Source: a virus. From it: a DNA stretch of 54,704 nt. The DNA lies in the IMG/VR virus record IMGVR_UViG_3300047578_000001, positions 1 through 54,704 of that record; one strand, 5' to 3'. The translations under genes were made by a program, and so were the position numbers. Below the pieces are notes generated by a model that worked only from the letters and a program-made list of their open reading frames with translations, did no database searches and had not been told where the DNA came from. Below, piece after piece: positions 7,429-52,551 of this stretch. Positions within the stretch are counted from its first letter, which is position 1, and every line of letters starts with the position of its first letter.

Positions 7429-7501
7429 GGACGTCTAGCCCAACGGCAGAGGCAACGCATTCAAGATGCGTTCAGTAAGGGTTCGAATCCCTTGTCGTCC
7501 A
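7429..7501 (+). tRNA. tRNA-Leu(CAA) with short variable loop
   Basis: Acceptor GGACGTC pairs with GTCGTCC (one T-T mismatch). T arm AAGGG-TTCGAAT-CCCTT; anticodon stem ACGCA/TGCGT with loop TTCAAGA gives anticodon CAA (codon UUG). The variable region is only 5 nt although bacterial tRNA-Leu is normally class II with a long arm. Discriminator A; no CCA encoded. It stands alone in the early operon, upstream of lsr2. Confidence 0.85.
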
Positions 7502-7539
7502 CTCCTAAAATCACAACAAAAATTGAAACGGAGAAAGTC

Positions 7540-49376: not shown

Positions 49377-49420
49377 GATGATCCATTCTGAGTTCTTAGC
49401 GATGACTGAAACTATCGACG

Positions 49421-49493
49421 TGCGGGAGGCGGGACTCGAACCCACGGCTTCCTGTTCCCAAAACAGGCACTCTGCCTACTGAGCTACACCCAC
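49421..49493 (-). tRNA. tRNA-Pro(TGG)
   Basis: Acceptor GTGGGTG/CTCCCGC with one mismatch, D stem GCTC/GAGT, anticodon stem CCTGT/ACAGG with loop TTTGGGA (anticodon TGG), T arm GTGGG-TTCGAGT-CCCGC. Discriminator A, no CCA encoded. Confidence 0.9.
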
Positions 49494-49549: not shown

Positions 49550-49624
49550 TGGCGGGGCCAGGAGGACTCGAACCTCCAACCGCGCTTTTGGAGAGCGCTA
49601 TTTTTCCACCTAAACTATGTCCCC
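49550..49624 (-). tRNA. tRNA-Trp(CCA)
   Basis: Acceptor GGGGACA/TGGCCCC (one mismatch), anticodon stem GCGCT/AGCGC with loop CTCCAAA (anticodon CCA), T arm GGAGG-TTCGAGT-CCTCC, discriminator G and encoded 3' CCA. Confidence 0.93.
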
Positions 49625-49626
49625 GT

Positions 49627-49713
49627 TTACTCTTCTTTGTCGTTATAACACTCACACCAGGCTGCTAGTCTGAGACAATCCGGGCAATAGAATATTTCTA
49701 TCTTGTCTGGCAC
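49627..49713 (-). CDS. Zinc-ribbon micro-protein in tRNA cluster (28 aa)
   Basis: GTG overlaps the upstream stop (TAGTG). (M)PDKIEIFYCPDC ... WCECYNDKEE has a CxxC and CxC pair. The start resembles the plus-strand micro-gene at 30864. Too short for usual gene finders. Confidence 0.6.
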   Translation of the reverse strand: MPDKIEIFYCPDCLRLAAWCECYNDKEE

Positions 49714-49787
49714 TATGAACGCTTACCCTCACAGGTACACGTCTGGGTCGTGCCGCCACAGCCGCCCATGCACACCTCGTACTTCAA
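49713..49787 (-). CDS. Cys-rich micro-protein in tRNA cluster (24 aa)
   Basis: TTG start with GGAGG 5 nt upstream. Sequence (M)KYEVCMGGCGGTTQTCTC has four Cys in 15 residues, suited to one zinc. Coupled to the next micro-gene. Confidence 0.6.
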   Translation of the reverse strand: MKYEVCMGGCGGTTQTCTCEGKRS

Positions 49788-49806
49788 TGTAACCTCCGTT
49801 ATTTGG

Positions 49807-49882
49807 TGGTCGGGAAGACGGGACTTGAACCCGCTTGGGTCGGCTTCACAAACCGATACCTCGTCCACTTCGGTATCTTCCC
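49807..49882 (-). tRNA. tRNA-His(GTG)
   Basis: Anticodon stem TCGGT/GCCGA with loop TTGTGAA (anticodon GTG), T arm GCGGG-TTCAAGT-CCCGT, variable loop 5 nt, encoded ACCA end. The acceptor fits GGGAAG/CTTCCC; the next pair is unclear, and the usual G-1:C73 His identity is not evident. Its first base directly follows the CCA of tRNA-Gln. Confidence 0.85.
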
Positions 49883-49957
49883 TGGCTGCTGATTCACGAT
49901 TCGAACATGAAATTGAAGGGTCAGAACCTTCCGTGTTGCCGGTTACACCAATCAGCA
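49883..49957 (-). tRNA. tRNA-Gln(CTG)
   Basis: Perfect acceptor TGCTGAT/ATCAGCA, D stem GTGT/ACAC, anticodon stem GAAGG/CCTTC with loop TTCTGAC (anticodon CTG), T arm TCATG/CGTGA, discriminator G, encoded CCA that abuts tRNA-His. Confidence 0.9.
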
Positions 49958-50025
49958 TTGCCTGTATTCCTCGCACACGGACCCCCGGAATCAAACGTTC
50001 CGGCTGGTAACAGTACCGTGCTGTG
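49958..50025 (-). other. Structured spacer between tRNA-Lys and tRNA-Gln
   Basis: No gene seen. The RNA could fold as CACGG/CCGTG enclosing CCGGAA-CGTTTGA-TTCCGG, resembling a reduced tRNA without D arm. Perhaps a tRNA remnant or processing element. Confidence 0.4.
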
Positions 50026-50101
50026 TGGTCATCCATCCTGGACTTGAACCAGGAACCTTGAGGTTAAGAGCCCCATGCTCTACCACTTGAGCTAATGGAC
50101 G
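50026..50101 (-). tRNA. tRNA-Lys(CTT)
   Basis: Acceptor CGTCCAT/ATGGATG, D stem GCTC/GAGC, anticodon loop CTCTTAA (anticodon CTT), T arm CCTGG-TTCAAGT-CCAGG, discriminator A, encoded CCA. Confidence 0.93.
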
Positions 50102-50105
50102 CTTG

Positions 50106-50179
50106 CTGGGATACTCGGACTCGAACCGAGAACTGCGACATTAACAGTGTCGTCTTCTGCCAAATTGAAGTACATCCCA
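50106..50179 (-). tRNA. tRNA-Asn(GTT)
   Basis: Acceptor TGGGATG/TATCCCA (last pair G-T), D stem CTTC/GAAG, anticodon stem CGACA/TGTCG with loop CTGTTAA (anticodon GTT), T arm CTCGG-TTCGAGT-CCGAG. No CCA encoded. Confidence 0.92.
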
Positions 50180-50244
50180 TTACAGGCCACTCGATACATC
50201 ACAGTGAAGCTGCTAGTGCGGCCGTGCGACATCGCTGGACCTAG

Positions 50245-50320
50245 TCGCCCATGAAGGATTTGAACCTCCGCAAACCCAGGTTCGTAGCCTGGTGCTCTCT
50301 CCGGACTGAGCTAATGAGCG
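50245..50320 (-). tRNA. tRNA-Arg(ACG)
   Basis: Acceptor CGCTCAT/ATGGGCG, D stem GCTC/GAGC, anticodon stem CCAGG/CCTGG with loop CTACGAA (anticodon ACG, needing A34 to inosine editing), T arm GGAGG-TTCAAAT-CCTTC, discriminator A, no CCA. Confidence 0.92.
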
Positions 50321-50326
50321 ATTGTA

Positions 50327-50416
50327 CTAACAGTGGCAGGGCATCCCACACTTCTGGCAGTTCGGGTTGCGGGGGCTGTCACACAAACAAATATGGGAAC
50401 CGTCTCGAAAATTCAT
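50327..50416 (-). CDS. Cys-rich micro-protein in tRNA cluster (29 aa)
   Basis: Between tRNA-Arg and tRNA-Leu. ATG 50416 (or 50422) gives MNFRDGSHICLCDSPRNP then CQKCGMPCHC: seven Cys and one His in the last 20 residues, enough for two metals. Ribosome site weak. Confidence 0.55.
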   Translation of the reverse strand: MNFRDGSHICLCDSPRNPNCQKCGMPCHC

Positions 50417-50436
50417 CCTCATCCAATCGTTGGTTG

Positions 50437-50510
50437 TACCCCTCCGCAGATTCGAACTGCGATCATCTCGGGTCTGAGCCGAGCGCCTCTGCCAATTGGA
50501 CTAGAGGGGC
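50437..50510 (-). tRNA. tRNA-Leu(CAG) with short variable loop
   Basis: Acceptor GCCCCTC/GAGGGGT, anticodon stem CTCGG/CCGAG with loop CTCAGAC (anticodon CAG), variable loop only 5 nt (ATGAT), T arm CGCAG-TTCGAAT-CTGCG, discriminator A. Like the early tRNA-Leu(CAA), it lacks the long arm normal for bacterial tRNA-Leu and shares its D arm type. Confidence 0.85.
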
Positions 50511-50583
50511 GTGGTAGGCGCGACTTCCGGGCCACTTTGACGGAAATCCCCTAGCCCTACGTGATTTGGACACGCAGCATTTG

Positions 50584-50652
50584 TACCGCACCGTGGATTT
50601 GCACCACGACAAAAAGGAGCTTATGAGACTCCCTGCGCACTACGCGCACGGT
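50584..50652 (-). tRNA. tRNA-like RNA with CAT anticodon and shortened D arm
   Basis: Acceptor ACCGTGC/GTGCGGT, anticodon stem GGAGT/GCTCC with loop CTCATAA (anticodon CAT: Met or Ile), T arm CGTGG-TGCAAAT-CCACG. The D region is cut to about 13 nt, so it may be a pseudogene or an unusual tRNA. Confidence 0.4.
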
Positions 50653-50701
50653 TCGCGCCCGTTTTGATTCCCAGACTGGCTCCGAACTGGGTACAGCGGT
50701 C

Positions 50702-50776
50702 TTAGTCGGTGCTCTGTGAGCAAGACAGCATGTGGTTGTCTGGCTCGTTCCCATACTCAGCGCAAAGAGACCCCAT
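50702..50776 (-). CDS. C2HC-type micro-protein C (24 aa)
   Basis: ATG overlaps the previous stop (TAATG). LCAEYGNEPDNHMLSC keeps the DNHxxxC end of its neighbours (DNHSPTC, GNHEEWC) but has Tyr in place of the second Cys. Third of three tandem micro-genes. Confidence 0.5.
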   Translation of the reverse strand: MGSLCAEYGNEPDNHMLSCSQSTD

Positions 50777-50850
50777 TATCGCCTACTGCATGTAGGACTG
50801 TGGTTGTCTCCAACACCACCACAAAATACACACTTCTTGGGCTCGCTCAT
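50776..50850 (-). CDS. C2HC zinc-knuckle micro-protein B (24 aa)
   Basis: ATG overlaps the previous stop (ATGA). CVFCGGVGDNHSPTC is nearly the whole protein and can bind one zinc. Paralog of A and C on either side. Confidence 0.6.
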   Translation of the reverse strand: MSEPKKCVFCGGVGDNHSPTCSRR

Positions 50851-50948
50851 GCGGGCTCCCTACGCTTTGGGTTGAAGTCACACCATTCTTCGTGGTTTCC
50901 ACCCTTGCCACCGCACTTCATGCAGGTGGTTGGTCGTAAGTCAGTCAT
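50847..50948 (-). CDS. C2HC zinc-knuckle micro-protein A (33 aa)
   Basis: ATG overlaps the methyltransferase stop (GTATGA). CMKCGGKGGNHEEWC repeats the pattern CxxCGG-x(3-4)-NHxxxC. The CGG spacing and NH are shared with B, so the set arose by duplication. Confidence 0.62.
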   Translation of the reverse strand: MTDLRPTTCMKCGGKGGNHEEWCDFNPKRREPA

Positions 50949-51535
50949 ACGTTCTTAGCCACAATCTGTTGGGACCATTCGACATCGATGTGGGACACGA
51001 TCTCCCACCCCGATGACTCGATCATCTTGGAGTATCCTTCTCGATCCCAGGCCCACGCGTGGTTCCACTCGTGGTATTCGGCAGTTTCCGAATGCGGGGA
51101 CGAAAAGACTGCGTACTGGATTTCACGCTGCTTCAAGTCCCAGAGGAACTTGTGGGGGTCTTCCAGGTGTTCCAACATCTCGGTACAGACCACAACAGGA
51201 GCCAACTCCAGGGTGTAATCCCCGGTGACGTTCCCGAAGCGCAGGTCCACACCACGAACTTTACACCCGTACTTGATGCTGACACCAATAACGTCGTACC
51301 CGAAGGCTGTGTACTCAGGCCGGATAAGCTCAAGCAACCCGCCATCACACGAGCCGATATCACAGATAGCAACACCACCGAGTTGATCGGATAGTGCCAT
51401 TGCGGTTTCAGCCGCTGAGACCAAGCGAGCTTGGTGCACACGGTTGTCGATGTGATTCACATGGGGCTGATCAACCCACCAGAGTGGGTCTAGCCACTCA
51501 GGCGGACTCAGGGGGTCGAAAAGCCTGGCTTCCAC
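50945..51535 (-). CDS. SAM-dependent methyltransferase (196 aa)
   Basis: Class I fold: ICDIGSCDGGLLELI (SAM-binding motif I), VVVCTEMLEHLEDPHKFLWDL (motif IV region) as in small-molecule and sugar methyltransferases. No DNA-methylase catalytic motif, so the target is likely a sugar, lipid or protein, perhaps linked to the glycosyltransferases. GTG 51535 after GAGGTG. Confidence 0.82.
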   Translation of the reverse strand: MEARLFDPLSPPEWLDPLWWVDQPHVNHIDNRVHQARLVSAAETAMALSDQLGGVAICDIGSCDGGLLELIRPEYTAFGYDVIGVSIKYGCKVRGVDLRFGNVTGDYTLELAPVVVCTEMLEHLEDPHKFLWDLKQREIQYAVFSSPHSETAEYHEWNHAWAWDREGYSKMIESSGWEIVSHIDVEWSQQIVAKNV

Positions 51536-51591: not shown

Positions 51592-52551
51592 TTAGACGGC
51601 CTCTACAAGCAGCGATCCACCCGCAGTAGCCGTATACTGGAGGAACACCGCATACGTGCCCTCAGGGGCCTGGTGACCGCCCATATCGGCAAAACCGGAA
51701 AGCATCGTGCCCTTCGGAACGATATCCACAGGGGTGCGCTTCCACTGGCCGTTTTCCAGCTTCGCGACAAGCCACTGAGCAACACCCAGCTTCATGCCGC
51801 CAGAACCGGCGGTGACGTTCACGTAGACTTCGGTGATCCCACCGTTGCCACCCTGCCAAGGCAGGGTCGTGAGAGACTCATTCAGGACATCAGGAAGCGT
51901 GGCGGGAACTGGAACAGACTGGAACATGGATTCCTTCTCTTCTTCGACAGGAGGTTCTGGCAGCGGGGGTTCAACATCCGGAATGGCAGCAGCCTGCGCC
52001 CGGAAAACGTTCATATCGATCATCAGGCCGGGAGCCCAACCTGGGTCCCACTTACCGTCGTAACCACGACCATTCACCTCACCATGACCACGAACGTATT
52101 CGAGGTTGCCGTCTGCGAACAGATCGGCCACTGCACGCGCAAACTTCTTGGAAGTAGCGTACTGTGCGTCCGTCATGGGCTGGTTGCCTGGATACACGAT
52201 CTCCAGGCCTACGGTGTAGTAGTTCCGGTTGCTGGCATAAGGGCTTAGCGGCCCCTGAGACGGCCCGTAGCCGCCTCCCGCGTGCCAGGTAAGCCCGGAG
52301 GCGATGACAGTCAGAGAGCCGTCAGCATTGCCGCTGAAGTTGCACAGCGCGTTGCCATAGGCCCAGTCCTGTCGACTGTAGACCAGGCCCTCGTAGGCCG
52401 AGCCGTAGTTGGAACCGGTGTGGTGGATGATCGCACCACGGATATCGATCTGGGGAGTGTCTTCGTTACCACGGCCGTACCAACCATCCCACTCTCGGAC
52501 TGTGATACCCCGTGCTCTTAGTTCGTTGACAAGAATCTCAACATCGCTCAT
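51592..52551 (-). CDS. Endolysin: N-acetylmuramoyl-L-alanine amidase (319 aa)
   Basis: Amidase_2 zinc enzyme: RGAIIHHTGS (first His ligand), LTWHAGGG, YYTVGLEIVY and RGHGEVNGRGYDGKWDPG (second His, Lys/Asp). Residues about 210-319 after a Pro/Glu linker form a separate domain, probably cell-wall binding. Cuts peptide stems from glycan. TAATG overlap with the lysozyme gene. Confidence 0.92.
   Translation of the reverse strand: MSDVEILVNELRARGITVREWDGWYGRGNEDTPQIDIRGAIIHHTGSNYGSAYEGLVYSRQDWAYGNALCNFSGNADGSLTVIASGLTWHAGGGYGPSQGPLSPYASNRNYYTVGLEIVYPGNQPMTDAQYATSKKFARAVADLFADGNLEYVRGHGEVNGRGYDGKWDPGWAPGLMIDMNVFRAQAAAIPDVEPPLPEPPVEEEKESMFQSVPVPATLPDVLNESLTTLPWQGGNGGITEVYVNVTAGSGGMKLGVAQWLVAKLENGQWKRTPVDIVPKGTMLSGFADMGGHQAPEGTYAVFLQYTATAGGSLLVEAV

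What the first reader, a model, noticed from the sequence alone, without database searches (positions are those of the whole stretch)
49627..50948. Zinc-knuckle micro-genes interleaved with the tRNA cluster
Six ORFs of 24-33 codons sit in gaps between tRNAs (50847-50948, 50776-50850, 50702-50776, 50327-50416, 49713-49787, 49627-49713). All encode Cys/His clusters; three in a row share C..CGG....NH...C and overlap by ATGA or TAATG. Overlaps, ribosome sites and conserved motifs make chance unlikely. Such a set of micro-metalloproteins with tRNAs has no function I know; they might bind tRNA, tRNA-modifying enzymes or ribosomes.
Basis: partly seen in the sequence, partly recalled or inferred. Interest (0 to 1): 0.8.

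Follow-up and report, generated by a model that had tools for sequence, protein, structure and literature searches.

The report
Tiny zinc-finger-like genes among phage tRNAs
A soil phage and its relatives carry a changing set of genuine 20-47-residue cysteine/histidine-rich genes, probably tiny zinc-binding proteins, tucked between their tRNA genes; they are real and undescribed, but what they do is unknown.

Summary
All six ORFs are at the stated coordinates. Four of the six (m1, m3, m4, m5) are real protein-coding genes by comparison with IMG/VR relatives. Window-versus-relative differences are 27 synonymous against 4 nonsynonymous; m5 alone is 13 against 0. m2 is supported by a close homologue and a shared motif. 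m6 is found only in the window and stays unproven. m1-m3 are paralogues with the pattern C-x2-C-x6-H-x3-C, although the window's m3 has lost one Cys. In a sister group the same slot holds five overlapping micro-genes, four of them of this family. Across 17 related contigs the tRNA gaps hold 17 CCHC ORFs on the sense strand, none on the antisense strand, and 0.09 expected from shuffles. Individual micro-genes are gained, lost and swapped as whole units, like the tRNAs. Two tRNA arrays from other actinophages lack them. The same spacing occurs in an uncharacterised phage family (PHROG 7051) that does not sit with tRNAs in the four phages I looked at. Best reading: late-expressed, single-zinc-site microproteins acting as small binding modules, carried as cargo in a recombination-prone tRNA region. 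A tRNA-specific role is possible but not shown. New variant of a known kind.

The parts
50847..50948 (-). m1, 33 aa, C-x2-C-x6-H-x3-C microprotein MTDLRPTTCMKCGGKGGNHEEWCDFNPKRREPA
   Evidence: Relatives in L012/L023/L014 (97% identical) and L007/L009 group (about 50%); W-L012 4 synonymous, 1 nonsynonymous
50776..50850 (-). m2, 24 aa, C-x2-C-x6-H-x3-C microprotein MSEPKKCVFCGGVGDNHSPTCSRR
   Evidence: 74% identical over 19 aa to a gene in L007/L009/L010/L015/L016; PHROG 7051 E=4.8e-4; absent from L012/L023 with m1 and m3 kept
50702..50776 (-). m3, 24 aa, degenerate copy: second Cys replaced by Tyr
   Evidence: L012/L023 orthologues have Cys; 6 synonymous, 3 nonsynonymous differences over 22 codons
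50327..50416 (-). m4, 29 aa, MNFRDGSHICLCDSPRNPNCQKCGMPCHC (6 Cys, 2 His), between tRNA-Leu and tRNA-Arg
   Evidence: Conserved in L002, L003, L013; W-L002 4 synonymous, 0 nonsynonymous; upstream ATG not conserved so start at 50416 is right
49713..49787 (-). m5, 24 aa, LKYEVCMGGCGGTTQTCTCEGKRS, TTG start with GGAGGT upstream
   Evidence: Conserved in L002, L003, L013 (ATG start in two); W-L002 13 synonymous, 0 nonsynonymous
49627..49713 (-). m6, 28 aa, VPDKIEIFYCPDCLRLAAWCECYNDKEE; window only, unproven
   Evidence: Overlaps m5 by TAGTG; no relative found; relatives carry MADPACPRCHGTGFFWMLGSWRPCGC in this place
50945..51535 (-). class I SAM methyltransferase-like gene directly upstream, overlapping m1 by ATGA
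   Evidence: Pfam Methyltransf_23 E=5.6e-7; absent from the L007/L009 group, which keeps the micro-genes
50436..50510 (-). tRNA-Leu(cag)
   Evidence: ARAGORN and Rfam
50244..50320 (-). tRNA-Arg(acg)
50105..50179 (-). tRNA-Asn(gtt)
50026..50101 (-). tRNA-Lys(ctt)
49883..49957 (-). tRNA-Gln(ctg)
49807..49883 (-). tRNA-His(gtg)
49550..49624 (-). tRNA-Trp(cca)
49420..49493 (-). tRNA-Pro(tgg)

Best explanation
m1-m5 are genuine genes for microproteins whose Cys/His residues most likely hold one structural zinc ion each. m1-m3 arose by tandem duplication of one C-x2-C-x6-H-x3-C module and are probably translated by termination-reinitiation at overlapping stop/start codons, from the polycistronic left-arm RNA that also carries the lysin, methyltransferase, tRNAs and tail gene, so probably late in infection. 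Each protein is too small to be an enzyme and most likely acts as a binding module on a nucleic acid or protein of the host. They sit among tRNAs because the array is a recombination-prone cargo region where small beneficial genes are swapped as units. Shown: coding, purifying selection, shared motif, gain/loss as units, clade-wide association with the tRNA array. Inferred: zinc binding, coupling, timing. Guessed: binding partner and benefit.
For: Substitution pattern: 13 pairwise ortholog comparisons over nine gene families give 68 synonymous against 13 nonsynonymous differences (binomial P about 1e-28 against a 25% synonymous expectation; pairs treated as independent); W-L002 m5 has 13 of 13 at third positions. 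Start codons move between ATG, GTG and TTG while downstream codons are kept. Only C7, C10, H17, C21 are invariant among 11 family members. 17 sense CCHC ORFs against 0 antisense and 0.09 in shuffles across 17 contigs. Unit-wise turnover: m2 missing in L012/L023 with m1 and m3 intact, m1-m3 missing in L013/L003/L002, m5 missing in L012 with the next micro-gene moved up behind the same ribosome site. Cargo reading: PHROG 7051-type proteins with the same spacing sit away from tRNAs in Hawkeye, Bananafish, JAMaL and Olak. Late timing: tRNAs of Rhodococcus cluster CA phage WC1 are transcribed late (PMC13313380); the cluster CA phage Takoda has 64% TerL identity to the window.
Against: No expression or metal-binding data exist. 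AlphaFold2 models are weak (m1 pLDDT 71, pTM 0.36; 47-aa family pLDDT 58) and the m1 model finds nothing in the PDB. Pfam zinc-finger matches are all below the curated cut-offs. m5 and m6 have no His and unusual Cys spacing. In whole records of this clade the m1-m3 family has strong matches only in the tRNA region, which a pure cargo reading does not predict.
Confidence: 0.6

Rival explanations
1. The microproteins act on tRNA or translation: free zinc-knuckle-like peptides that bind phage or host tRNAs, protect them from anticodon nucleases, or bind the ribosome, and are kept with the tRNAs because they work with them.
For: Association with the array in essentially every member of the clade with TerL at 75% identity or more, with at least eight sequence types of micro-gene; strong family A matches in these records only at the tRNA locus. 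Phage tRNAs are proposed to counter tRNA-cutting defences (PMC10264068).
Against: Two other actinophage tRNA arrays have no such ORFs; contig L084 with 20 tRNAs has none; PHROG 7051-type proteins occur away from tRNAs in the four phages inspected; no tRNA-binding family matched.
Confidence: 0.22
2. Cys-codon-rich attenuators: stalling at Cys codons when cysteine or tRNA-Cys is short regulates downstream genes; the peptide itself does not matter.
For: Mycobacteria have polycysteine short ORFs that act as cysteine-responsive attenuators (Canestrari et al. 2020, cited in PMC9094748 and PMC7790235); these ORFs lie in an operon; the array has no tRNA-Cys.
Against: No adjacent Cys codons in any of the six window ORFs; conserved His, Gly, Asn and other residues and strong purifying selection along whole ORFs; several copies in a row; downstream genes are often tRNAs, not proteins.
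Confidence: 0.07
3. Metallothionein-like or redox buffers that soak up metal or thiol-reactive species.
For: Some members are very Cys-rich (m4: 6 Cys and 2 His in 29 aa; the 47-aa family has CxCxCGC...CxxC...H).
Against: m1-m3 have exactly four spaced ligands, the design of a structural site rather than metal storage.
Confidence: 0.06
4. Chance ORFs in spacer DNA.
For: Each is short; m6 has no relatives and no clear ribosome site.
Against: Substitution pattern, motif conservation, and excess over shuffles and antisense.
Confidence: 0.03
5. RiPP precursor peptides modified by the neighbouring methyltransferase.
For: m1 overlaps the methyltransferase gene by ATGA.
Against: The L007/L009 group has five micro-genes and no methyltransferase in that place; L013/L003/L002 have the methyltransferase without m1-m3; no leader/core layout.
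Confidence: 0.02

Closest known systems
PHROG 7051 (37-aa phage family of unknown function; at least one of the inspected mycobacteriophages, Hawkeye, matches it at E 1.8e-9)
   Same: C-x2-C-x6-H-x3-C with CGG and (N/D)H; tiny size; phages of Actinobacteria; m2 matches at E 4.8e-4
   Different: Single copy, sometimes at the start of a 74-78-aa protein, not among tRNAs in the phages inspected; m1 and m3 give no hit to the profile
Zinc knuckle (zf-CCHC, retroviral nucleocapsid type)
   Same: Short CCHC module; the fourth L007 micro-gene matches zf-CCHC_6 weakly (E 0.006, below cut-off)
   Different: Canonical spacing C-x2-C-x4-H-x4-C is not met; stand-alone single-module proteins
N-terminal C2HC finger of about 220-aa proteins in the tRNA regions of T4-like phages (one homologue annotated HNH endonuclease)
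   Same: GNHxxWCxxNPKR stretch and location in a tRNA region; tblastn E 0.1
   Different: Longer Cys-His spacing and attached to a large protein; the match is not significant
DnaJ-type CxxCxGxG zinc module
   Same: Some gap ORFs in relatives (CPRCHGTG, CYTCKGG...CPTCHGNG) carry it
   Different: One or two repeats only, no J domain; not m1-m6
Polycysteine attenuator short ORFs of mycobacteria
   Same: Short Cys-rich ORFs in actinobacterial operons
   Different: No runs of Cys; protein sequence itself is conserved

Membership tests
PHROG 7051 | Ligand pattern C-x2-C-x6-H-x3-C | tested here: met
   m1, m2, L012 m3 and the L007 genes; same spacing in Hawkeye, JAMaL, Bananafish, Olak
PHROG 7051 | Significant match to the family profile | tested here: inconclusive
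   m2 E 4.8e-4, an L053 gene 7e-4, L007 second gene 0.01; none for m1, m3, m4, m5, m6
zf-CCHC zinc knuckle | C-x2-C-x4-H-x4-C spacing | tested here: not met
   Spacing is C-x2-C-x6-H-x3-C
Zinc-binding protein (general) | Binds Zn(II) through the conserved Cys/His | not testable with these tools
   Only sequence conservation available; AlphaFold2 models too weak
Protein-coding gene | Excess of synonymous change between relatives | tested here: met
   m1, m3, m4, m5 and five families of relatives; m2 by homologue only; m6 not possible
Polycysteine attenuator | Runs of consecutive Cys codons | tested here: not met
   No CC in any of the six
tRNA-binding or translation factor | Binding to tRNA, ribosome or tRNA enzymes | not testable with these tools
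   Needs an experiment

The most novel reading that the evidence does not exclude
A phage clade maintains a dedicated, quickly diversifying set of single-zinc microproteins that work together with its tRNA array, for example by guarding or remodelling tRNAs against host tRNA-cutting defences, translated partly from short RNA pieces left between excised tRNAs.
Probability: 0.18. Interest if true: 0.82.

Novelty: new variant of a known kind. Interest (0 to 1): 0.58.

Why it matters
Genes of 20-33 codons are usually dropped by annotation. Here comparative evidence shows a whole set of them, some near the lower size limit for a folded protein, kept by selection in one phage region. If they work with the tRNAs, they would give a handle on the open question of why phages carry tRNA arrays. 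If they are cargo, they are a ready collection of minimal zinc modules with unknown host targets.

Tried and rejected
(1) Direct tblastn of m1 and m2 in annotated phages: no significant hits; the E 0.1 hits to T4-like phage proteins were followed up and judged suggestive only. (2) DNA searches of the region hit only tRNAs and TerL. (3) Related annotated phages (Conspiracy, Takoda, Remus, Blue7, Trixie, BabyBack) have 1-3 tRNAs and no such genes annotated there. (4) AlphaFold2 and Foldseek were uninformative. (5) Profile of A1 against PDB sequences: only short CxxC matches. (6) PADLOC: nothing useful. (8) Prophages with 62-67% TerL in Pseudonocardiaceae lack the set. (9) RiPP, attenuator and chance readings considered and down-weighted. 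(10) No paper describing such a set was found; Fremin et al. 2022 on small phage genes was not held, so the families may be listed there.

Full report
What is there. The window is a virus record of 54,704 bases whose terminase large subunit (TerL) is 64-65% identical to Rhodococcus phages RGL3 and Takoda and to Mycobacterium phage Conspiracy. Reading along the minus strand, the order is endolysin (51592-52551), methyltransferase-like gene (50945-51535), m1, m2, m3, tRNA-Leu, m4, tRNA-Arg, tRNA-Asn, tRNA-Lys, tRNA-Gln, tRNA-His, m5, m6, tRNA-Trp, tRNA-Pro, a tail-repeat gene and TerL.

Are they genes? Relatives came from scans of IMG/VR with TerL, the methyltransferase and the endolysin. Orthologues of m1 (L012, L023, L014; more distantly L007, L009, L010, L015, L016), m3 (L012, L023), m4 and m5 (L002, L003, L013) were compared codon by codon. 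Window against nearest relative: m1 4 synonymous and 1 nonsynonymous, m4 4 and 0, m5 13 and 0, m3 6 and 3: 27 against 4 in all. Adding comparisons among relatives, 13 pairs over nine families give 68 against 13; with a 25% synonymous expectation the binomial probability is about 1e-28 (this sum leaves out the window m3 comparison). The pairs are treated as independent, which they are not fully, but the size of the effect does not depend on that. Start codons move (m5 is TTG in two phages and ATG in two; the gene after m5 is ATG or GTG) while the codons behind them are kept. m2 has no close orthologue to test, but a gene in the L007 group is 74% identical over 19 residues. m6 has no relative at all.

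How the set varies. In L012/L023, m2 is missing while m1 and m3 are intact. In L013, L003 and L002 the whole m1-m3 block is gone, leaving a 5-codon ORF (MSQIQ or MSNIQ) after the methyltransferase. In L012, m5 is missing and the next micro-gene (VADPACPRCHGTGFFWMLGSWRPCGC) stands directly behind the same AAGGAGG site. In the L007/L009/L010/L015/L016 group the methyltransferase is absent from this place, and five micro-genes of 25-38 codons run from the endolysin to the first tRNA, each overlapping or abutting the next; four of the five belong to the m1-m3 family. More distant members (TerL 75-80%) have other Cys/His micro-genes in their gaps: a 20-aa KCxCxxCxxYHSPxC gene before tRNA-Met, a C-x2-C-x3-H-x4/5-C gene after tRNA-Trp, and a 40-47-aa CxCxCGC...CxxC...H gene between tRNA-Val and the tail gene. 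These groups were picked with the help of their Cys/His pattern, so the invariance of the ligands in them is partly by construction. The m1-m3 family was first reached by tblastn and by synteny; in it the four ligands are the only invariant positions across 11 sequences. The window's m3, not among those 11, breaks this with Cys to Tyr, so it may be decaying.

Is it more than chance, and is it special to this clade? In the window the gaps hold six Cys-rich ORFs against 0.69 in shuffles and none antisense. Over 17 related contigs: 56 Cys-rich sense ORFs against 10 antisense and 12.9 in shuffles, and 17 CCHC ORFs against 0 antisense and 0.09 in shuffles; several of these contigs are close relatives, so counts are not independent. 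The tRNA arrays of Arthrobacter phage Atuin and Streptomyces phage Faust have ORFs in their gaps, of which at most one is Cys-rich and none is CCHC, so this is not a general property of phage tRNA arrays. Whole-record searches with the m1-m3 profile give strong matches only at the tRNA locus in the window and in the records behind L012, L007, L009 and L010.

What they resemble. m2 matches PHROG 7051 (E 4.8e-4). Four mycobacteriophage proteins inspected share the C-x2-C-x6-H-x3-C spacing: Hawkeye, JAMaL, Bananafish and Olak. They came from tblastn with the Hawkeye ORF, which has 364 matching records at the loose limit used; the Hawkeye stretch matches the PHROG profile at 1.8e-9. None of the four sits next to tRNAs in the regions viewed. 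The spacing is not that of a classical zinc knuckle. Pfam matches to zinc families are below cut-offs. m1 also resembles the N-terminal finger of about 220-aa proteins found in the tRNA regions of T4-like phages (GNHTRWCDLNPKR; E 0.1), which may be coincidence. AlphaFold2 gave weak models and Foldseek no match, so zinc binding rests on sequence pattern alone.

How it most likely works. Shown: coding, selection, family relationship, turnover as units, clade-wide association with the tRNA array. Inferred from sequence and known biology: one zinc per protein, translational coupling through ATGA/TAATG overlaps, and late expression, since tRNAs of cluster CA phage WC1 are transcribed late (PMC13313380). 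Not shown: partners and benefit. I favour small binding modules carried as cargo in a recombination-prone tRNA region (0.6) over a tRNA-specific function (0.22). The attenuator reading, suggested by the polycysteine short ORFs of mycobacteria (Canestrari et al. 2020, as cited in PMC9094748 and PMC7790235), fits poorly because there are no adjacent Cys codons and the whole peptide is conserved.

Verdict. The tRNA function remains a hypothesis. New variant of a known kind: tiny Cys/His proteins of phages are known as uncharacterised families, but an interchangeable, partly tandem set threaded through a tRNA array was not found in the databases or papers searched.

Noticed in passing
window 50584-50652 (-): Probable tRNA-Met(CAU) missed by ARAGORN and Rfam: minimum-energy fold is a cloverleaf with a very short D hairpin (4 pairs, 3-base loop) and loop CTCATAA; closely similar in L012, L013 and L003. 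Also scored as a terminator-like site.
   Followed up: partly
window 49970-50028 (-): Hairpins resembling a T arm and acceptor ends (CACAC...GTGTG) without room for a full tRNA; perhaps a tRNA remnant. By eye only.
   Followed up: no
L003 3465-3482, L002 and L013 same place: Five-codon ORF (MSQIQ/MSNIQ) left behind the methyltransferase where m1-m3 are missing; the same stretch lies between m1 and m3 in L012.
   Followed up: partly
window 50945-51535 (-): Methyltransferase-like gene with no tblastn match in annotated phages; found at 61-85% identity only in this IMG/VR clade, plus one 39% match.
   Followed up: partly
L007 3562-3765; L041 332-613: Other Cys-rich gap ORFs, including a DnaJ-like CxxCxGG...CxxCxGNG protein between tRNA-His and tRNA-Ile and three in a row after tRNA-Asn.
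   Followed up: no
L017 2947-3624, L018 2965-3633, L019 2956-3612: T4-like phages carry a roughly 220-aa protein with an N-terminal C2HC finger; in L017 and L018 it lies among tRNAs, and one homologue is annotated HNH endonuclease.
   Followed up: partly
window 7429-7502 (+): Single tRNA-Leu(caa) far from the array.
   Followed up: no
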